Below, piece after piece: positions 1 to 32,146 of a stretch of 32,304 bases of DNA; position 1 is the first letter of the stretch; each line of letters starts with the position of its first letter. Below the pieces are notes generated by a model that saw only the letters and a program-made list of their open reading frames with translations, was not told the DNA's origin and did not search any database. The stretch spans positions 1-32,304 of the forward strand of contig CANQCR010000015.1 of NCBI GenBank assembly GCA_947589735.1. Reading direction: 5' to 3'. The translations under genes were made by a program, and so were the position numbers. This DNA is from an uncultured Bacilli bacterium (GTDB lineage Bacteria; Bacillota_I; Bacilli_A; RF39; UBA660).

Positions 1-143
1 CTTCGAGGAGATAAAATGTTTATCGTAGCCTCTCCAAGCTATGGAAATTTGGGTGATCAAGCTTTACTTCGAGGAGATAAAATGTTTATCGTAGCCTCTC
101 CAAGCTATGGAAATTTGGGTGATCAAGCTTTACTTCGAGGAGA
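1..143. repeat. exact 66-bp tandem duplication at the window edge
   Basis: Bases 1-66 and 67-132 are identical, and the first 11 bases of the unit (CTTCGAGGAGA) occur a third time at 133-143 before the sequence diverges. The unit is 22 codons, so the reading frame is kept and the peptide segment starting MFIVASPSYG is present twice. The third partial copy continues into the normal protein. It could be a real in-frame slippage duplication through the 11-base homology, or an assembly artefact at a contig end. Confidence 0.97.
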
Positions 144-7849: not shown

Positions 7850-8746
7850 ATGAGTAGTTTTAGGGATAATGTCTTCATCTTTGGTTATGACTTTGATTCG
7901 GGTATCACTTCACCTAATCAAGAAGAATTAATGCAGCTTAGTTCTGAACTTATTAGTATTGATATTACCCCTTCACCTGTAAAGGCATTAACGTTAAAAC
8001 AAGTTACAATCGGCGCTCAAAACTTTTTTAATAGACATTTAAAACTATATCCCATCTACTATGCTGATCCTGTTAAACTAATTTCAACTGCTAAAAAAAA
8101 GAATCCTGAAACAGTTAAAGATTGGAAAAAAATAATTATTAAATATCGAAAAAAAATTAGTCCTTTTAGTCTTCCTCTTACATTATCTAGTGAAGATAAT
8201 CCTACGACTGCTATCCATCACTATAGCGGTAGCATTCACTTTATGCAGGCATTAAAGGATACTCATCCCCTATTTAGTGAAATTGAGCTCGCACCATTCA
8301 TCACCTTACAAACAATTCCCTTCTATGTTCATGAAATAACCCATAGTCAAACTATGAGTCAAAGAGGTAGTGTTCAAAATTATAATCATAAAGAACTTTT
8401 ACCTTTCTTTTTAGAACTTGTTTCTAGTCAAGAACTAGATGATGTCACTAATAATATTATCAAATCGATGCTAGATACTATTACCACTTCCATAAACGAA
8501 ATCTTAACTTATAGTTATAGTGGTGAAATTATTTCAAGTAGAATGAGTTATGTCATATCAATTATGGAAGCCTTCCATTTATTTGCTTTATATAACTGTA
8601 GTAGTTATAGTGTACAAAGAAGAATAATGAAAGATATTCAAAACACATTTAAAGGTAAAATATCAGTTGAGGATATTTTAGCTAATTATCATATCTCTTT
8701 TGATAATTCAAAAGACAAACAATATGTTATGCATCTATTATCTTAA
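7850..8746 (+). CDS. putative zinc metallopeptidase, HEXXH family, paralogue 1
   Basis: A 298-residue protein with the zinc-protease motif HEITH at about 161-165 and a likely third ligand, Glu 189 in FFLELVSS. The HEXXH-x23-E layout with Ser/Thr right after the motif resembles the catalytic helix pair of M3 oligopeptidases (gluzincins), but the protein is about half their length and the rest is not recognisable. It has no signal peptide or membrane segment, so it is probably cytosolic. Paralogues 2 and 3 follow directly. Blocks shared by all three are NFF..HLKL.PI, SPF.LP/DPFDLP, the HEXXH region ending GSV, and a C-terminal DNS segment. Substrate is unknown. Confidence 0.75.
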   Translation: MSSFRDNVFIFGYDFDSGITSPNQEELMQLSSELISIDITPSPVKALTLKQVTIGAQNFFNRHLKLYPIYYADPVKLISTAKKKNPETVKDWKKIIIKYRKKISPFSLPLTLSSEDNPTTAIHHYSGSIHFMQALKDTHPLFSEIELAPFITLQTIPFYVHEITHSQTMSQRGSVQNYNHKELLPFFLELVSSQELDDVTNNIIKSMLDTITTSINEILTYSYSGEIISSRMSYVISIMEAFHLFALYNCSSYSVQRRIMKDIQNTFKGKISVEDILANYHISFDNSKDKQYVMHLLS

Positions 8747-8761
8747 TATATGGAGGTAAAT

Positions 8762-9679
8762 ATGACCTTACTTAGATTATATAGTTTAGCGCCAATTTTT
8801 GAATATGACTTAAAATTATTTAAGATACCTGAAAAAACTCATTTAATTAAAGTTAGTACGGAACTAAGTTCTATACCAATAGATTTACCAAATTCCTTTA
8901 AAAGGATATCATTAAATAAAATTAAAAAATATACCCAAAATTTCTTCGCTAATTATTTAAAACTACACCCTATATTAGGAATTGATGGTGATGAAGTTGA
9001 TAGGCGCCTAGAAGATGTTGGCCTTCCTGTTCCAACAGAAATAGCTAAACAAGCTCTAGATGGTCTATATGATTTTATCGACCCTTTTGACTTACCTATT
9101 ACACTTGTAAGCAATGGTGATTTGTTTCATGGTCAACTTTTATATATAGATGAAACCGCTAAAGCGATTGAGGGAATGCCCTTTTTAGCTAGTAGTATTG
9201 AGTTAAATAGTTTAGTTGGTATGCAAACAATGTCTCTTTATGCTCATGAGATAACCCATACCCAAGTTATGAGTGTTAAAGGTAGTGTTAAAAATTATTA
9301 TAATAATGAAGTCTTATCTATTTTTTTAGAATTACTGGCCAGTATGGAAATTGATAATTCAGGATTTATGTTAGATGCTACTTTGAAATCACTTATATCA
9401 ATGTATCAAGAATGCATTAAAAACATACTTGATAAAAAAATTAATCAAGATGCTGTCATCGAATGTATGCGTTACGCCGTTTCTATTATTAAAGTTTTTC
9501 ACTTGTTTGATTTATACTATAGTGGTGATGCAAGTTTTAAAAAAAGGATTATCCACGATATTCAAGAAATATTTGACGGGCAAAAAAATGTTGAAGCTTT
9601 TTTAGCTAATCATAATGTAACAATGGATAACTCAGCAGACAAAAAGTATGTTATGCATCTATTAAATCAAGTGGGGTGA
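8762..9679 (+). CDS. putative zinc metallopeptidase, HEXXH family, paralogue 2
   Basis: A 305-residue paralogue of the preceding gene. HEITH lies at about 162-166 and the proposed third ligand is Glu 190 in IFLELLAS, at exactly the same spacing. I chose ATG 8762 since the in-frame ATG at 8750 overlaps the GGAGG (8752-8756) that serves this start with a 5-base spacer. It begins 15 bases after paralogue 1 ends. The C-terminal block DNSADKKYVMHLL is nearly the same as in paralogue 1, while the N-terminal ~50 residues differ most, which suggests divergent partners or substrates. Confidence 0.75.
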   Translation: MTLLRLYSLAPIFEYDLKLFKIPEKTHLIKVSTELSSIPIDLPNSFKRISLNKIKKYTQNFFANYLKLHPILGIDGDEVDRRLEDVGLPVPTEIAKQALDGLYDFIDPFDLPITLVSNGDLFHGQLLYIDETAKAIEGMPFLASSIELNSLVGMQTMSLYAHEITHTQVMSVKGSVKNYYNNEVLSIFLELLASMEIDNSGFMLDATLKSLISMYQECIKNILDKKINQDAVIECMRYAVSIIKVFHLFDLYYSGDASFKKRIIHDIQEIFDGQKNVEAFLANHNVTMDNSADKKYVMHLLNQVG

Positions 9680-9681
9680 TA

Positions 9682-10620
9682 ATGATGACTGAATTAGAAA
9701 AAGAATTTCTTATATGCGGATATCATCAATTAAGACCTATCAAAGTGACCAACAAATTACTTTATGCTAGAGACATATTAGATAGTATTCCAATTAATGA
9801 TGAATATTTACAAGTCAATGTTATTCCCGAAAAAGAAGTTATTGCTAGCGCTAAAAATTTCTTTAGTGCTCACCTAAACCTTCACCCCATCTTAATGGCA
9901 GATACGCAAAGTTATCTCGAAGTAGTTAGCAAAACAAATGCTATGATGGCTAAAGAATGGATTGCTCTTTATAAACAAATTGGTATACCAATAAGTCCCT
10001 TTAATTTACCTATTCAATATACCGAAAAGCATGCTTTTGCTGGATATTTAAAAACTTTTGGCGACTATGTCGATAGTGATTATGTCTTAAAATATTCACC
10101 CGCATTATTCTTAAATATCTTTTTATCTAAAACAATTAACGAAGATACACCCATCAGTTATGTCCATGAAATAGGTCATACACAACTTATGAGTGTCAAA
10201 GGATCAGTTATTTCTTTCTATGATTGTGAAATAATTCCTATCTTCCTTGAATTAGTAGCCGCAATGGATCTTGATGATGACAATTATCTTCTTCATATCA
10301 ATATTGTTCATCGCTTGGAAACACTCATCGCTATTATTGAAAGCTTAAATGATCCCCTTTTTGAAGAGAAACTAAAAGCGGAAAACGATGAAACAGAAAA
10401 TATTCCAACTTATTGGTCATATGTTATTTCTATTTTTAAAGCTTTTCATCTATTTAGTTTGTATCATGATGGTAATATTGAGACCAAAAAAGAGATAATG
10501 GCCTATATTCAAAAAATCTTTGATGGAGAAATTAAAGTGGAAGATATGCTTAAGAAATATAGTATAAGTTATGATAATTCAATGTCTAAAAAAAGCATTA
10601 TGAAAGTATTTACACTTTAA
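9682..10620 (+). CDS. putative zinc metallopeptidase, HEXXH family, paralogue 3
   Basis: The third tandem copy, about 312 residues. HEIGH at about 162-166 is closer to the usual M3 HExGH form, and Glu 190 (IFLELVAA) sits at the shared third-ligand position. A loop around residues 225-245 (NDPLFEEKLKAENDETEN) is an insertion compared with the other two. The start is ATG 9682 or 9685; an upstream in-frame GTG at 9676 lies in the GGGGTG ribosome site. Only two bases separate it from paralogue 2. No maturation target, immunity gene or transporter is in the operon, so function remains open. Confidence 0.72.
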   Translation: MMTELEKEFLICGYHQLRPIKVTNKLLYARDILDSIPINDEYLQVNVIPEKEVIASAKNFFSAHLNLHPILMADTQSYLEVVSKTNAMMAKEWIALYKQIGIPISPFNLPIQYTEKHAFAGYLKTFGDYVDSDYVLKYSPALFLNIFLSKTINEDTPISYVHEIGHTQLMSVKGSVISFYDCEIIPIFLELVAAMDLDDDNYLLHINIVHRLETLIAIIESLNDPLFEEKLKAENDETENIPTYWSYVISIFKAFHLFSLYHDGNIETKKEIMAYIQKIFDGEIKVEDMLKKYSISYDNSMSKKSIMKVFTL

Positions 10621-24305: not shown

Positions 24306-24336
24306 ATAAAAAAAGCCAGCAATTAAAACTGCAGAC
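24306..24336 (-). terminator. terminator of the HipA-like operon
   Basis: On the minus strand AAAGTCTGC pairs (one mismatch, one G-U) with GCTGGCTTT, followed by TTTT. The TAA stop lies in the loop. Confidence 0.65.
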
Positions 24337-25273
24337 TTTTTATTTTTGTAGCCTCTTCCTTTTTTTCATCAATAAATGATTTTAAGAAAGAAATACAATC
24401 ATCACTAACAGAAATACCAGCATTATAGCATGGAGCGTATTTTTTTAAAACAGGATTAAAATCCGTTGTACATAATATATTTATGACTGCTGCTACTTCT
24501 TCGGGATAATCAAGCATTAACTCAGATATGTTATAATCTAATCCCTCAAATTGCTCCGGATGATTTTTAAACTCTAATTGACTATAAGGTATAGCTGGAA
24601 TCCATATTTTTGGATATTCGCTATCAATAACCCCGTTAGGTGAAACAGCAAACGAAGATTCACTATCAATTAGACGTGCCAAGCGAAGCGGAATCAAATC
24701 ATCAAATGATAAATCGCTATATTCAAATAACAAATTACATGAATTACGATCCAATTGATGTGTAAACCAATCAATTACATAAGTAGCAATAATTTGCAAC
24801 TTTAATTCTTCATAATTAGGAATGTCATGTCTACTAAGTATTTCCAATAGTCCTTTAATGGTAAAAGCATTATGCTGACGTGGTAAATCATAAAACAAAT
24901 TGTGCAAAGTTGTTAAATCACAATAATTAAACTCAGAACTTTGAACATTTGGTGATAACAACCCAACCCTTTCTGATAGCATCATTTTATTGGCATGCTC
25001 AACTAAAATAACAGGTTTATATTCAGCTGGCGCTAAATGAAATGAACCACCAACTAGGGAAATAACATCTTTAGATAATAATTCGCCAATAAAGCGTGCA
25101 TCTTTATGAGTTTTAAAGTAATGAACAAAATTATTAACAATATACCAGTCTGGTTTTTCACGATAAAGTTTGTGCGAAATAGCAACGCTTTTTTCAACTT
25201 GAGAAAAAGTTAACCGAGCGGGATTAATTACTCTTTCTATATATTTCCTATTAATATTTATACTATATGTCAT
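24323..25273 (-). CDS. HipA-like kinase-fold protein, second of a pair
   Basis: A 316-residue soluble protein resembling the HipA/CtkA kinase group, which phosphorylates proteins. The catalytic-loop-like segment WFTHQLDRNSCNLLFEY (about 169-185) has Asp 175 and Asn 180 at the D-x4-N spacing of HipA kinases, followed by RLIDSESSF, where Asp 203 would be the metal-binding (DFG-like) aspartate. It shares GLLSPN, HNAFTIK/YNSYTLK and W.PAIPY/W.PAVPY with its neighbour. It starts 24 bases after that gene, behind GAGG. There is no HipB-type DNA-binding partner. It may instead be a substrate-modifying effector, or inactive; the usual HipA N-terminal domain is not evident. Confidence 0.6.
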   Translation of the reverse strand: MTYSININRKYIERVINPARLTFSQVEKSVAISHKLYREKPDWYIVNNFVHYFKTHKDARFIGELLSKDVISLVGGSFHLAPAEYKPVILVEHANKMMLSERVGLLSPNVQSSEFNYCDLTTLHNLFYDLPRQHNAFTIKGLLEILSRHDIPNYEELKLQIIATYVIDWFTHQLDRNSCNLLFEYSDLSFDDLIPLRLARLIDSESSFAVSPNGVIDSEYPKIWIPAIPYSQLEFKNHPEQFEGLDYNISELMLDYPEEVAAVINILCTTDFNPVLKKYAPCYNAGISVSDDCISFLKSFIDEKKEEATKIKSLQF

Positions 25274-25297
25274 ATTTAACCTCTATACTAATTACAT

Positions 25298-26197
25298 TTA
25301 TACTAATTTCATTATTTTTTCTTTTTCTTTAGTTTTTTCTTCAGCCATATGCTTTAAATATCCAAGGGTCGCTTCAGGTAAAATTATTCCTTCATCGCGC
25401 GTTACAAAATTGTCCAAAACATGTTCTATATCAATTGATGTTACCCAATTTAATGCCTCTATAGTAGCTTCAGGGTAATCCAAAAGAAGAGATACAATAT
25501 TAGCATCTAAGCCCTCAAAAAGATAGGGTTCAGATTTAAAGTCTAAATCTTCATATGGCACGGCTGGAACCCATATACCTAAAGTTTCATCATCAAGCTC
25601 ACCATTTCTGTTTATACCAAATGATTGCTCACGATCAAATAACGGGCCAAGTTCTAGCTGATTAGTTTCTTTATTTAAGCGGAAATTATTATTACGTGGG
25701 TTACCATCTAGTTGATGTGTATACCAATCAAATACATATCTTTTTATAATTTCCTTTTCTAGCATACATCTCGTTGGTGCGTCATAATAATAAGCAAATG
25801 TTTCAAAAATCTTTTTCAATGTATAACTATTATACGTTTTGGGGAATGATGGAAGAAGTTTATATAATTCGCATAAATCAAAGTATTGGTATTTATCGCG
25901 ATTTTGAAAATTAGGCGACAAAAGACCCGTATGTTCATTTAAAGTTACGACAGAATAAGTAGCACTTTCAGCACCTAAAGCTTCTGCATAAGCTTGGGAA
26001 AGGCATTCGCAAGCAAGTCTTGCATCATTTCTTTCTTTAAAGAAATTAGCTGTCGAATCAATATAAAACCACGAGTCTTTTTCAATCAACAATGCCTCGT
26101 CAATATCAACATATGTATGAACAACATCACGACTTAATTTACAAATAGGTCCATACTTTTTAATTTTACGAGCATTTAATCTAATACTATAAAGCAT
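25298..26197 (-). CDS. HipA-like kinase-fold protein, first of a pair
   Basis: A 299-residue paralogue of the next gene in the operon. The loop YTHQLDGNPRNNNFRL (about 159-174) has Asp 164 and Asn 169, and ELGPLFDREQSFG carries Asp 188, matching the pattern D-x4-N then LxPLFD of HipA-like kinases better than its partner. The N-terminal lobe shows CECLSQAYAEALGAESATYS and EHTGLLSPNFQ, consistent with an ATP-binding lobe. A run of G before the ATG (GGGGGGTGG) is the ribosome site. No signal peptide. A tandem pair without an antitoxin-like gene is unusual. Function unknown. Confidence 0.65.
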   Translation of the reverse strand: MLYSIRLNARKIKKYGPICKLSRDVVHTYVDIDEALLIEKDSWFYIDSTANFFKERNDARLACECLSQAYAEALGAESATYSVVTLNEHTGLLSPNFQNRDKYQYFDLCELYKLLPSFPKTYNSYTLKKIFETFAYYYDAPTRCMLEKEIIKRYVFDWYTHQLDGNPRNNNFRLNKETNQLELGPLFDREQSFGINRNGELDDETLGIWVPAVPYEDLDFKSEPYLFEGLDANIVSLLLDYPEATIEALNWVTSIDIEHVLDNFVTRDEGIILPEATLGYLKHMAEEKTKEKEKIMKLV

Positions 26198-28178: not shown

Positions 28179-28922
28179 ATGAAAAATGATATAGAAGCAT
28201 TGTTAAAAGATTTTAATCGCATTAAAAAGATAGGATGGATAGAAAGTATGAGAAAAGGTTCAACTGGGATTGGTTACACATTTGAAACTTTACTGAACAA
28301 AGAAGAAAATAGTCTAGAAATTCCTGACTATGGTTCGATTGAGATAAAAACGAAAAATAAACATAGTAAAATGCCCGTAAGACTATTTTGTGCAACACCA
28401 GATGGTGATGATCTGTTCCCGACCAAAATAATTAGAGAAAACTTTAGCTATCCAAGTAAGAAAGATAAGAATATTGTTGTTTTTAATGGAATCATCAATG
28501 CTAAATCATTTACTAAAATTGGAAATAGATATCTATTTAAGTTAAAAGTAGATCGAATATCCAATACAATAAAATTAATCGTAATAGACATAAACTGCAA
28601 TTTAATATGTGATAATATTTCTTGGAGCTTTGATATGTTAAAAGACAAACTTTCAAGGAAGTTGACTTATCTAGCCATTATAAATGCTGAGCGAAAGTTT
28701 GAGCACAATAAGGTATTTTTTCACTATCAAAATATAGACTTTTACAAGTTAAAAAACTTTGACACTTTTATTTCCTTAGTGGAAGACGGAATTGTAAAAA
28801 TATGTTTTGCTATTGGAACATATAAAAATGGTCCCAATATGGGGAAAACACATGATCACGGGATAATGTTTGAAATAAACGAAGAAGATATTCTGAAATT
28901 ATATGATGTAATATGTGTTTAA
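28179..28922 (+). CDS. MvaI/BcnI-like restriction endonuclease without a partner methyltransferase
   Basis: A 247-residue nuclease-like protein. GSTGIGYTFETLLNKEEN at about 27-44 and PDYGSIEIKTKN at 49-60 match the MvaI/BcnI pattern (G.GyT.E.LLG..EN...PD....E.K); Asp 50, Glu 55 and Lys 57 form the D-x4-E-x-K active site, the same arrangement I recall for MvaI. Known relatives are monomeric enzymes acting on CCWGG or CCSGG; specificity here is unknown. The ribosome site is AGGAGGG. No DNA methyltransferase is within the window, which is atypical for a restriction gene and raises the options of a repair-type or solitary nuclease. It sits between proS and tRNA genes. Confidence 0.82.
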   Translation: MKNDIEALLKDFNRIKKIGWIESMRKGSTGIGYTFETLLNKEENSLEIPDYGSIEIKTKNKHSKMPVRLFCATPDGDDLFPTKIIRENFSYPSKKDKNIVVFNGIINAKSFTKIGNRYLFKLKVDRISNTIKLIVIDINCNLICDNISWSFDMLKDKLSRKLTYLAIINAERKFEHNKVFFHYQNIDFYKLKNFDTFISLVEDGIVKICFAIGTYKNGPNMGKTHDHGIMFEINEEDILKLYDVICV

Positions 28923-29028: not shown

Positions 29029-29105
29029 TGGTCCGGAAAACAGGATTTGAACCTGCAACCCCTTGGTCCCAAACCAAGTGCTCTACCAAATTGAGCCATT
29101 TCCGG
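29029..29105 (-). tRNA. tRNA-Pro (anticodon UGG)
   Basis: Acceptor arms CCGGAAA and TTTCCGG, T8-G9, D arm starting GCTC, anticodon stem CTTGG/CCAAG with loop TTTGGGA (UGG), T arm GCAGGTTCAAATCCTGT, and an encoded CCA. It reads CCA codons and others by wobble. It is second in the transcription unit after tRNA-Arg. Confidence 0.95.
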
Positions 29106-29108
29106 AAG

Positions 29109-29185
29109 TGGTGCGCCCAGGAGGAGTCGAACCCCCAACCTTTTGATCCGTAGTCAAACACTCTATCCAATTGAGCTATGAGCGC
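29109..29185 (-). tRNA. tRNA-Arg (anticodon ACG)
   Basis: Acceptor GCGCTCA with TGGGCGC (one wobble), anticodon stem TTTGA/TCAAA with loop CTACGGA (ACG, deaminated to ICG for CGU/C/A codons), T arm GGGGGTTCGACTCCTCC, and encoded CCA. Three bases separate it from tRNA-Pro. Confidence 0.95.
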
Positions 29186-29253: not shown

Positions 29254-31677
29254 CTAATTGCCAAAAGCCTCAATATTACTTACGCTGTAAGTTGTATCTT
29301 TTTTTGTAGTTGATACAATTGTATTTAATGACTGCAAAACATCATAAGATACTTTTTGTTGACCTGAAATTACAAAACCAATACTATCTTGTGGAGTAAG
29401 TGCAGTATACGCGATTAAGTAATTATGCCCTTGTTTATCAGTTAAATCGTATACAACATAATTTACGTTGTTTATAGATTGTATTCCTTGAGAAACTGTA
29501 AAACCAAGTTTTGTATAACTATTCCGCGTTGTGGTTCGTGTTTTTGATGAACTCAAAGTGGAATATTTTTGATTCAAGCCAATGGAGATTTTGACATTAT
29601 AATTATCAACAGTTGTTACCACTGAACGATTATATATGCTGTAGTCATTTAAACTCATACTATATCCATTAAAAATGAATGTCTTCTTCTCGTTATCTTT
29701 GGCCTTAATTTCATTTTCTAAACTATTTATTTTAACGTTTAATTCTTCTTTATTATCTTCTAATCTACTAATTTTTTTGGTATTATCTTCATTAATTAAC
29801 CAATAATAAACAAGCCATGCAATACTTGCAAGTAACAAAATTACCAATACAAGAATTGGTAAAGACTTGCTAGTCTTTTTATTTTGAGCGACAAATTCCT
29901 CATTCGAAGTCAAATTGGAAGTTTTTTTACCATCATTTGACTCTTCGTGATTATCTTTCTCTTCTTGTTCTGAAACTACCTTTCCTTCCTCTTGTAATTC
30001 TTCTTCAGAATCAGAGGTAGATTTTTCATCTATATCTTTTTGATTATCTTCCTGATGTGTTTTTTCTTCATCAAATAATTCATCAACTGATGGCATAGAA
30101 ATGGTATCAAGCGTTATTTCAGTTTCATCTGCTTTTTCGTTTAATACTTCTTCTGTATCGCCTGATTGATTGTTTTCATCTTGATTGTTTTCTGATTCAT
30201 CATTTTCTTCTTGCAACTCAGGTGTTTCCCCATCTCCTTCATCAGAAGTTTCTTCATCGATACTTTCGTCTAATTGTTCACTATCTACTTCTTCTTTTGA
30301 TGTTTCAGATTCTGAAGTTTCTAAATCTTCTTCGGCAGTAGAATTATCATCAACACTAACATCTTCAGATTTTTCATCTTCGTTAAATTCTTCTTTTGAT
30401 TCATCTTCAGAATCAGAAGTAGATTTTACATCTATTTCTTTTTCATTGTCATCCTGTAATTCTAATACCTCAGTAGAATTTTCTTCTGAAACTTCTTCAT
30501 TTTCATTATTATTTTCTTGACTATCTGACTCTTCGGTTAAATCTTCTACCCTTTTGTCTTCTTCTAAAGAGTTTGTATCATCTAATTCTTCTGACAATTC
30601 TTCAGTAGATTCTTTTTCACTGTCATCTGCTTTAGAATCATTTTCTTCAACATCAGATTCTAAAGTTGAATGGTCTTCCTCTGATGTTTCTTCATGTAGT
30701 TTAGATTCATCAGGATTATCTTCTTTTGGCTCTTCTATGCTATCATCAGCCGAATCTTTACTAACTTGTTCTTCTGGTAATAGCTCTGTTAATTGATCTT
30801 CTGCTGAGGCCATTTGCTTTTCTGGTTCTTCACTAATATCAGAATTATCATTTCCTTCATCATTATTTTCGACTGCTTCGGTATTATCTTCAATATTAGA
30901 TATTACATCATTGTCACCATCATTAGAAAAGTTATTTTCATCGGATTCCGTTTCATTATTTTCGATATTTTTATCTTCATTTTCATTCAAAAGTTCATCT
31001 CCCTGAACTTGATTTTGCTGATCATTAAATGACGCTGAAGATGGTATGGATGCATCAAGAAGATCTTCACTAGTGCTATTATCCTTATTCAATAACAAGT
31101 CATCAACTTCTGATGTAGTTTTTGTAGCAGTTTCTGATTTAGGAAAAATGGTTTCATCTGGCCTAAGTAAATCTGCAACAGCGACGCGATCTGTTTTGTT
31201 ATTATCTTCAGAACTATTTTGTCCTGACAAATAACTTGTCAAAACAGCATTATTATTATCGCCAATTTTAACTTCAGGCTCAGATGATTCGTTTGCTGCA
31301 TCACCATTCATTTCTTTCAAAATATCTGCAACTTTTTTAGAAGATTCAGTTCCCAATGACAAAGTATCCATTGAACCTGGCAACACCTCAACATTAAATG
31401 TTTGCGTATTTTGGTTATATTGATTATCATCATCAGATACATCCTGCAACCCAAAACGACTAGCTTTTTTAGTTAATGCCTCAGCCTCTTCTTTTATTAA
31501 AGCGATTTTACGGATATCAATATTTTCTGTTAATTCTATATTGTGTTTTTCAGCTTCAGTTAAATCTTTATCATTAATTATGTCTTTCTCTTTATGGTCT
31601 CTATCAACAGGTGTACCACAAATACGGCAGAAACGTGCTTTTGCTGGTATATCTGTACCACAATTTTCACATCTCAC
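29254..31677 (-). CDS. zinc-ribbon protein with long acidic disordered region and single membrane helix
   Basis: An ~807-residue protein of unknown function. The N-terminus MRCENCGTDIPAKARFCRIC is a zinc ribbon (CxxC-x12-CxxC). Residues ~60-590 are extremely rich in Glu, Asp, Ser and Asn and are probably disordered, with an imperfect repeat (KSTSDSE twice). A hydrophobic helix follows at ~606-627 (LPILVLVILLLASIAWLV), then a short coiled coil (~632-662) and a C-terminal ~140-residue domain, probably outside the cell, resembling nothing I know. I chose the GTG at 31677 because GGTGA lies 5 bases upstream and zinc ribbons typically begin MRCxxC; TTG 31689 and GTG 31686 are alternatives. It has its own promoter region and is followed by the tRNA promoter. 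Confidence 0.75.
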   Translation of the reverse strand: MRCENCGTDIPAKARFCRICGTPVDRDHKEKDIINDKDLTEAEKHNIELTENIDIRKIALIKEEAEALTKKASRFGLQDVSDDDNQYNQNTQTFNVEVLPGSMDTLSLGTESSKKVADILKEMNGDAANESSEPEVKIGDNNNAVLTSYLSGQNSSEDNNKTDRVAVADLLRPDETIFPKSETATKTTSEVDDLLLNKDNSTSEDLLDASIPSSASFNDQQNQVQGDELLNENEDKNIENNETESDENNFSNDGDNDVISNIEDNTEAVENNDEGNDNSDISEEPEKQMASAEDQLTELLPEEQVSKDSADDSIEEPKEDNPDESKLHEETSEEDHSTLESDVEENDSKADDSEKESTEELSEELDDTNSLEEDKRVEDLTEESDSQENNNENEEVSEENSTEVLELQDDNEKEIDVKSTSDSEDESKEEFNEDEKSEDVSVDDNSTAEEDLETSESETSKEEVDSEQLDESIDEETSDEGDGETPELQEENDESENNQDENNQSGDTEEVLNEKADETEITLDTISMPSVDELFDEEKTHQEDNQKDIDEKSTSDSEEELQEEGKVVSEQEEKDNHEESNDGKKTSNLTSNEEFVAQNKKTSKSLPILVLVILLLASIAWLVYYWLINEDNTKKISRLEDNKEELNVKINSLENEIKAKDNEKKTFIFNGYSMSLNDYSIYNRSVVTTVDNYNVKISIGLNQKYSTLSSSKTRTTTRNSYTKLGFTVSQGIQSINNVNYVVYDLTDKQGHNYLIAYTALTPQDSIGFVISGQQKVSYDVLQSLNTIVSTTKKDTTYSVSNIEAFGN
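30002..30456. repeat. imperfect 53-bp direct repeat in the acidic gene
   Basis: Bases 30002-30054 and 30404-30456 are closely similar and in the same frame; both encode a segment around D-KSTSDSE-E. This points to internal duplication as a way the acidic region has grown. Confidence 0.75.
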
Positions 31678-31773
31678 TGCAATCACCAACCCTTTATTAT
31701 ATACATAAATAATATATCATTTTATGTCAAAACTTACAAGTTTTAATGACATATATTTAAAAATAATTTGCAC

Positions 31774-31811: not shown

Positions 31812-31887
<76 letters not shown>

Positions 31888-31892
31888 AAAAA

Positions 31893-31968
31893 TGGCGGTT
31901 CCGACGAGAATCGAACTCGCGATCTTTTGCGTGACAGGCAAACGTGATAACCGCTACACCACGGAACC
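31893..31968 (-). tRNA. tRNA-Asp (anticodon GUC)
   Basis: Acceptor GGTTCCG/CGGAACC with discriminator G, anticodon stem TTTGC/GCAAA and loop CTGTCAC (GUC), T arm GCGAGTTCGATTCTCG, encoded CCA. Confidence 0.96.
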
Positions 31969-31971
31969 ATT

Positions 31972-32048
<77 letters not shown>

Positions 32049-32055
32049 ATCTAAG

Positions 32056-32146
32056 TGGCGGAGAAAGAGGGATTCGAACCCCCGCGCCGTCGCCGACCTC
32101 TCGGTTTTCAAGACCGATCCCTTCAACCAGACTTGGGTATTTCTCC
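32056..32146 (-). tRNA. tRNA-Ser (anticodon UGA)
   Basis: 91 bases with a long variable arm typical of Ser. Acceptor GGAGAAA/TTTCTCC, discriminator G, anticodon stem TCGGT/ACCGA with loop CTTGAAA (UGA), CCA encoded. First gene of the cluster; the order Ser-fMet-Asp-Phe is usual for Bacilli. Confidence 0.96.

What the first reader, a model, noticed from the sequence alone, without database searches (positions are those of the whole stretch)
29254..31677. Zinc-ribbon, 500-residue acidic disordered region, membrane helix, new outside domain
The order is unusual: a cytosolic zinc ribbon on a very long acidic tether, then a single helix and an unknown extracellular domain. The acidic part contains internal repeats. 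It may act as a cytosol-to-surface sensor, or as a scaffold at the tRNA/ribosome-rich cytoplasmic side.
Basis: partly seen in the sequence, partly recalled or inferred. Interest (0 to 1): 0.5.

Follow-up and report, generated by a model that had tools for sequence, protein, structure and literature searches.

The report
Zinc-ribbon membrane protein, variable acidic tether
This gene of an uncultured gut bacterium encodes a one-pass membrane protein with a zinc ribbon inside, a long acidic floppy tether and an outer domain of a known fold (PsbP/DcrB-like); the layout is common in its relatives, but the tether is unusually long and carries short conserved stretches that look like docking sites.

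Summary
One intact gene, 29254-31677 on the MINUS strand (GTG start), encodes 807 residues: zinc ribbon (1-25), a 544-residue mostly acidic linker, one membrane helix (605-623), a coiled coil and a ~140-residue C-terminal domain. Six other genomes of the genus carry it uninterrupted, so it is no frameshift fusion.

The outer domain is new by sequence only: its AlphaFold model (mean pLDDT 85) has the Mog1p/PsbP-like fold (best match DcrB, Z 10.2). The order of parts is ordinary here: of 48 fetched proteins with this domain, all have a membrane segment and 41 a zinc ribbon near the N-terminus; S. aureus TcaA is drawn the same way. What is unusual is the tether: about 550 residues here and in one sister species, 95-261 in the five other orthologues, poor in acidic residues in the related genes of the five remaining genus genomes. 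Between the sister species its core is free to change (31% identity), while residues 63-200 and 515-540 are about as constrained as the outer domain.

Best explanation: a bitopic envelope protein whose outer PsbP-like domain binds an envelope partner and whose disordered tail docks cytosolic partners. Partners are unknown.

The parts
29254..31677 (-). whole gene, 807 codons and stop, GTG start (alternative TTG at 31689)
   Evidence: the six orthologues have ATG at the matching codon
31603..31677 (-). zinc ribbon, residues 1-25, C3-C6...C17-C20
   Evidence: PF13240 above cut-off; AF2 pLDDT 91-92 for residues 1-20
31486..31542 (-). conserved motif NIELTENIDIRKIAL and following residues, 46-64
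   Evidence: E48 L49 T50 N52 I53 D54 identical in 7 of 7 orthologues
31078..31491 (-). constrained, weakly acidic linker block, residues 63-200, with islands SSKKVADILKEMN (112-124), RVAVADLLRPDETIF (164-178), EVDDLLL (190-196)
   Evidence: dN/dS 0.07 against the G005 orthologue; low-confidence helices at 111-124 and 167-171
30136..31077 (-). acidic core, residues 201-514, free to change
   Evidence: 31% identity, 26 gap columns, dN/dS 0.80; D+E 0.40 here and 0.38 in G005
30058..30129 (-). conserved island DETEITLDTISMPSVDELFDEEKT, residues 517-540
   Evidence: dN/dS 0.09, 85% identity for 515-540
29809..29865 (-). membrane helix, residues 605-623
   Evidence: mean hydropathy 2.75
29695..29793 (-). 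coiled-coil stalk, residues 629-661
   Evidence: one long helix in the model, pLDDT 62-83 by blocks; heptad-like sequence by eye
29257..29685 (-). outer domain, residues 665-807, Mog1p/PsbP-like fold
31812..32146 (-). tRNA-Phe, -Asp, -Met, -Ser upstream (context, not part of the gene)
29029..29185 (-). tRNA-Arg(acg) and tRNA-Pro(tgg) downstream (context)
   Evidence: adjacent in 11 of 12 genus genomes

Best explanation
It is a single-pass envelope protein, N-terminus inside. Outside, a PsbP/DcrB-like domain on a coiled-coil stalk binds another envelope component (inferred from fold). Inside, a zinc ribbon at the very N-terminus and a disordered tail with several short conserved motifs (ELTxNID, SSKKVxxILKEM, VADLLRPDETIF, SMPSV[DE]ELF) dock cytosolic partners, so that the protein couples or gathers them at the place where the outer domain is bound. 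The acidic core between the motifs is a charged spacer whose length and exact sequence matter little. Shown by computation: anatomy, predicted fold, selective constraint of the islands and freedom of the core in one species pair, conservation in the genus. Inferred: orientation, disorder, binding, coupling. Unknown: the partners.
For: Orthologues with the same order of parts in 7 of 12 genus genomes and a related ribbon/linker/helix/domain gene at the same locus in the other 5. Mog1p/PsbP-like model: DcrB 6e8a_B Z 10.2, rmsd 3.3 A over 102 residues; SciW 8.9; Tsi3 8.7. Foldseek's nine matches at E <= 0.001 (1.2e-4 to 8.4e-4): six are titled PsbP, three are chains of photosystem or NDH supercomplexes that I take for PsbP-like subunits. 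[quoted passage not shown] a PsbP/Mog1 domain is described as a protein-protein adaptor in type VI secretion (PMC4275035, passages read). dN/dS between the sister species: 0.07 (63-200), 0.09 (515-540), 0.06 (outer domain) against 0.80 (201-514). The outer domain of the window protein has no cysteine, the ribbon has four.
Against: No partner, operon or phenotype: the flanks are tRNA genes. Motif conservation is uneven: ELTxNID in 7 of 7, the [VI]..[LIM]L[KE]EM word in 4 of 7, [VI][ADE][DEN][LIM][LF] in 3 of 7 (4 copies in the window and in G005, 1 in G011), and three orthologues (G010, G006, G001) have none of the last three patterns tested; the five related syntenic proteins have none of the four. 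dN/dS rests on one species pair, my own Nei-Gojobori script, dS of 0.8-1.3 in the blocks compared, and an uncertain alignment of the low-complexity core. Foldseek TM-scores are low (0.36-0.43 of the query for the best nine, rmsd 5.5-7.1), as the model includes a long helix. Charges beside the helix do not settle orientation, and one orthologue (G004) has -6 before and +2 after it, against the positive-inside rule. Disorder is inferred from composition and low pLDDT.
Confidence: 0.45

Rival explanations
1. The tail is only a spacer. The zinc ribbon and the outer domain do the work, and the acidic stretch grew by drift in one sub-lineage without a role of its own.
For: Linkers run from 95 to 552 residues among 7 orthologues; the core is nearly unconstrained; at the same locus 5 genus genomes have linkers poor in acid (D+E 0.08-0.16, P 0.07-0.21) without any of the four motifs; net charge of the shorter orthologues is mild (-0.07 to -0.17 per residue).
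Against: Residues 63-200 and 515-540 are under strong purifying selection between the sister species, which a pure spacer would not need; ELTxNID is kept in 7 of 7.
Confidence: 0.25
2. It is a signalling receptor: the outer domain senses an envelope state and the cytosolic ribbon or tail, perhaps after regulated proteolysis, changes gene expression.
For: Inside-tail, single-helix, outside-domain layout as in membrane-bound regulators; zinc ribbons can contact nucleic acid or protein (general knowledge).
Against: No sigma factor or regulator noticed by eye beside the orthologues in the ORF lists (neighbours were not annotated systematically); the zinc anti-sigma motif H-x3-C-x2-C (recalled) is absent.
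Confidence: 0.2
3. It is a scaffold on the ribosome/tRNA-rich side of the membrane.
For: It lies between tRNA genes and the Arg-Pro tRNA pair is its neighbour in 11 of 12 genus genomes.
Against: Adjacency of genes says nothing about contact of products. A stem with T-run after tRNA-Phe (read by eye) and a promoter-like site before tRNA-Arg (TTGCAA-17-TATAAT; one of 23 sites where 14.5 are expected) suggest separate transcripts; in G007 the tRNA pair is inverted. A strongly negative tail would be expected to repel RNA.
Confidence: 0.05
4. It is an assembly or sequencing artefact that joins two genes.
Against: Six further genomes, five Lapin bins and UBA5578, keep one open frame over the same parts; dN/dS well below 1 in both the N- and the C-terminal parts.
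Confidence: 0.01

Closest known systems
TcaA of Staphylococcus aureus
   Same: Intracellular zinc finger, one membrane span, most of the protein outside (AlphaFold reading in PMC10328498, section 8, passage read).
   Different: NCBIfam's TcaA model gives 15.1 bits, to the N-terminal part alone, against a cut-off of 550, and is not listed for the full protein or the C-terminal part at E <= 10; very long acidic linker here (length of TcaA's linker not looked up).
Mog1p/PsbP-like fold, nearest DcrB (PDB 6e8a)
   Same: Fold of the outer domain, Z 10.2 over 102 residues; DcrB too is membrane-anchored outside the cytoplasm (PMC7716261, passages read).
   Different: 10% sequence identity; no Pfam DcrB or PsbP match for the window domain at E <= 1; DcrB is a lipoprotein in that paper.
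Other ribbon/linker/helix proteins of the same GTDB family
   Same: 41 of 48 fetched ORFs with this domain have the ribbon, 48 of 48 a hydrophobic segment before the domain.
   Different: Linkers of the other 46 at most 334 residues by the same count, against 584 here and 592 in G005; 33 of 48 linkers have D+E under 0.20 (recounted).
Single-pass zinc-ribbon proteins noted beside Skillet-2 lipocones
   Same: Zinc ribbon in the cytoplasmic part of a one-helix protein (PMC12419801, section 26, passage read).
   Different: Paired with a lipocone gene there; no such neighbour was looked for here.

Membership tests
Zn_Ribbon_1 (PF13240) | Two CxxC knuckles with score above the curated cut-off | tested here: met
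   28.5 bits against 25 for the whole protein, residues 3-24
Mog1p/PsbP-like fold | Three-dimensional fold of the outer domain | tested here: met
   On a predicted model only: Foldseek prob 1.00, E 1.2e-4 to 8.4e-4 for the best nine, but TM-scores only 0.36-0.43; DcrB Z 10.2, rmsd 3.3, 102 aligned
DcrB (PF08786, accession recalled) or PsbP Pfam families | Sequence profile match of the outer domain | tested here: not met
   Window domain: no such family at E <= 1 (table A); PsbP_2 (PF18933) weakly in 2 of 28 rows, best E 0.0029 (table B, first 25 of 80 families shown)
TcaA | Intracellular zinc ribbon and one membrane span | tested here: met
   the orientation itself is inferred
TcaA | Full-length equivalog model above cut-off | tested here: not met
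   NF053815: 15.1 bits against 550, residues 2-58 of the N-terminal fragment; not listed for the full protein
TcaA | TcaA-type outer domains | tested here: inconclusive
   No TcaA chain among the 50 listed fold matches; absence from the list excludes nothing
Zinc-dependent anti-sigma factor | H-x3-C-x2-C motif in the cytosolic domain (motif recalled) | tested here: not met
   Only cysteines are 3, 6, 17, 20, with no His four residues before C3 or C17

The most novel reading that the evidence does not exclude
In this lineage of small-genome gut Bacilli the N-terminal zinc ribbon is a common plug: different surface proteins (with PsbP-like, WG-repeat or thioredoxin-like outer parts) present the same ribbon inside, and this locus has turned the linker into a 550-residue charged strip with several docking helices, a multivalent inner platform held under one outer domain.
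Probability: 0.2. Interest if true: 0.5.

Novelty: new variant of a known kind. Interest (0 to 1): 0.33.

Why it matters
It gives an uncharacterised gene, present in one form or another in all 12 held genomes of its genus, an anatomy and a fold, and shows a disordered tail whose conserved islands can be told from free spacer. If many surface proteins of these uncultured gut bacteria share one inner zinc-ribbon plug, finding its partner would explain a whole class of unnamed proteins at once.

Tried and rejected
Frameshift or chimera: rejected, six intact orthologues. tRNA/ribosome scaffold: no evidence beyond gene order. Mobile insertion into a tRNA cluster: not supported, since each of the 12 genus genomes has this or a related gene there. 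Anti-sigma reading: motif absent. A lipoprotein in G158 (L009) first matched at E 2.6e-4 and would have fixed the domain outside; profile searches gave 2.8 and 3.9 bits, so I dropped it. L010 was dropped likewise. The family search with helix and coiled coil in the model (122 of 386 genomes) is not used as a count: most of its weak matches cover only the helix and coiled coil. PDB sequence searches gave no significant match to the outer domain; hits such as the monofunctional glycosyltransferase (E 2.9e-4) cover the membrane helix and coiled coil. VIA-align and Foldseek list no TcaA chain; that excludes nothing. AF2 of residues 1-212 is poor outside the ribbon (mean pLDDT 53.7, pTM 0.18), so its short helices are hints only. 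I first called the linkers of the five related syntenic genes 'non-acidic'; their net charge (+0.03 to -0.12 per residue) overlaps that of one orthologue (G010, -0.07), so I now say only that they are poorer in D+E. Joint ancestry of the 7 acidic and 5 related syntenic genes: neither shown nor rejected (two clades, 99/98 and 100/99; p-AU 0.209). Paper searches for zinc ribbon with PsbP (3 papers, two looked into by passages) and for three of four terms zinc ribbon, single transmembrane, disordered linker, Firmicutes (1 paper, not opened) showed no description of this architecture in what I saw. Searches listed only papers off topic; two found none.

Full report
What is there. The finding's coordinates hold one open reading frame on the minus strand, 29254-31677, 807 residues with a GTG start. 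A TTG four codons further upstream is possible; the six orthologues have ATG at the GTG position, giving M-x-C, so the GTG is preferred. The parts are: zinc ribbon, residues 1-25 (PF13240 above its cut-off); a motif NIELTENIDIRKIAL at 46-60; a linker to residue 604; a membrane helix at 605-623; a long helix at about 629-661; a folded domain at 665-807. The protein has exactly four cysteines, all in the ribbon.

Is it real? A protein search with the C-terminal part over the 12 held genomes of the genus, the window's own included, found it in 7 of 12. All seven genes are open from ribbon to domain, with lengths 807, 815, 364, 526, 416, 491 and 409. Six of them were found again under named records: five 'uncultured Bacilli bacterium' Lapin bins and Bacillales bacterium UBA5578 (identical ORFs). 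A frameshift joining two genes is therefore excluded.

The locus. In the window the gene lies between tRNA-Ser-Met-Asp-Phe and tRNA-Arg(acg)-Pro(tgg). The five genus genomes without a match were searched for the Arg-Pro pair; each has a gene for a zinc ribbon, linker, helix and related outer domain beside it. So 12 of 12 genomes have this or a related gene; the Arg-Pro pair is adjacent in 11 of 12 (in G005 the contig ends about 100 bases after the gene); in 10 of these 11 the pair is downstream on the same strand, in G007 it is inverted. The linkers of the five are poorer in D+E (0.08-0.16 against 0.22-0.33 in the seven), though in net charge the two sets overlap (+0.03 to -0.12 against -0.07 to -0.26 per residue). 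The domains form two well supported clades of 7 and 5; whether these are one clade is open (p-AU 0.209). A stem with T-run after tRNA-Phe (by eye; the scan's own terminator rule did not list it) and a promoter-like site before tRNA-Arg suggest that the gene is transcribed apart from the tRNAs.

The outer domain. AlphaFold2 on an alignment of seven orthologues gave mean pLDDT 84.6, by blocks 85-96 over model residues 41-160, with order b-b-b-b-b-a-a-b-b-b-b-a. Foldseek has nine matches at E <= 0.001: six titled PsbP, three chains of photosystem or NDH supercomplexes that I take for PsbP-like subunits; TM-scores are low, 0.36-0.43. VIA-align puts DcrB first (Z 10.2, rmsd 3.3 A, 102 residues), then SciW (8.9), BT_1490 (8.9) and Tsi3 (8.7), with PsbP chains at 5.8-7.8, LpqN 6.6 and Mog1 6.2-6.6. 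Values under 8 can mean only a common arrangement, but several members of one fold agree and DcrB stands above. No Pfam family matches the window domain at E <= 1 except a weak GMP_synt_C (E 0.04). So: known fold, new sequence family.

How common is the layout? A domain-only profile (A6, 31 rows) found matches in 43 of 288 genomes of the order sample; every genome listed there, matching or not, belongs to the window's GTDB family, so this does not test spread beyond it. In the phylum sample 3 of 295 matched: the window genome, one of at least ten other listed genomes of its family, and one weak match (E 7.8e-4) in another family of the class. Among 48 distinct ORFs with the domain in the loci that I hold (not a random sample, and including the rows of the profile), 48 have a hydrophobic segment before the domain and 41 a ribbon near the N-terminus. 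The ribbon-to-helix distance is 592 and 584 residues in G005 and the window, 334 or less in the other 46. In the window's genome 8 places match the N-terminal profile; 5 are N-terminal ribbons followed by membrane helices (four with one, one with two), 3 are ribbons elsewhere in two ORFs; outer parts include WG repeats and a weak thioredoxin match. Of 74 far-related ribbon loci (L096-L169), 3 were dropped as cut by contig ends; of 71, 30 have one membrane segment, 21 several, 20 none, by simple hydropathy. The layout is therefore ordinary; the length and charge of this tether are the extreme.

The tether. Between the window and its sister species G005, my Nei-Gojobori script gives dN/dS 0.27 for the ribbon, 0.27 for 26-62, 0.07 for 63-200 (138 codons, no gap), 0.80 for 201-514 (307 codons, 26 gap columns, 31% identity), 0.09 for 515-540, 0.25 for 541-603, 0.26 and 0.24 for helix and coiled coil, 0.06 for the outer domain. 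Charge is kept where sequence is not: D+E 0.40 and 0.38, net -0.36 and -0.30 per residue. The conserved parts hold short amphipathic motifs: SSKKVADILKEMN (a form of it in 4 of 7 orthologues), VADLLRPDETIF, VDDLLL, SMPSVDELF. The word [VI][ADE][DEN][LIM][LF] occurs four times against 0.055 expected from shuffles, a test made after seeing it; it is in 3 of 7 orthologues, and three orthologues have none of the patterns tested beyond ELTxNID. None of the four motifs is in the five related syntenic proteins. AF2 of residues 1-212 folds only the ribbon; of its four low-confidence helices, 111-124 and 167-171 fall on these motifs, 59-74 follows ELTxNID, and 41-48 falls on none. This is the usual look of short binding motifs in a disordered tail, with the acidic core as spacer.

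Mechanism. I commit to a bitopic envelope protein that links an outer PsbP-like binding domain to cytosolic partners docked on ribbon and motifs (0.45). Anatomy, predicted fold and selection are computed results; orientation, binding and coupling are inferred; partners are unknown. Against it stand the uneven conservation of the motifs, the single species pair behind the selection estimate, and the flanking charges, which in G004 even point the other way.

Known kin. TcaA has the same topology (PMC10328498, passage read) but this protein fails its family model. DcrB shares the fold (PMC7716261, passages read) but not the sequence family. Verdict: new variant of a known kind, of modest interest; the constrained islands in the tail are the part worth following.

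Noticed in passing
window 28179-28922 (+): An MvaI/BcnI-family restriction endonuclease (PF15515, E 2.7e-43); no methyltransferase noticed by eye among the neighbouring ORFs. Similar genes sit beside the same tRNA pair in L005/L013, L006/L014, L184, L185 and L186 (by eye).
   Followed up: partly
window 7850-10620 (+): Three tandem genes of about 300 codons that look paralogous, each with an HExxH word (YVHEITHSQ, YAHEITHTQ, YVHEIGHTQ) like a zinc metalloprotease core; no Pfam match for the middle one.
   Followed up: no
window 1-110: The first codons of the polysaccharide-pyruvyl-transferase gene are duplicated in frame (MFIVASPSYGNLGDQALLRG twice) at the very contig end, probably an assembly-end artefact.
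   Followed up: no
window 24323-26197 (-): Two adjacent similar genes, one with a HipA_C match below its cut-off, the other without a Pfam match; no HipB-like partner noticed by eye.
   Followed up: no
L182 4457-5995 (-); L183 6003-7571 (-) and 7540-8001 (-): In G002 and G003, 1.5-2 kb from the syntenic gene, a membrane protein resembling RsgI-type anti-sigma factors (by eye only), in G003 with an ECF-sigma-like ORF beside it.
   Followed up: no
L009 3-2423: In G158 a small lipoprotein lies behind two LiaF-like membrane genes and before an MscL-like gene (names by eye); its likeness to the outer domain was not confirmed.
   Followed up: partly
L183 939-1095: G003 has a second Pro-Arg tRNA pair (cgg, ccg) about 2 kb from the first (tgg, acg), perhaps a duplicated and recoded pair.
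   Followed up: no
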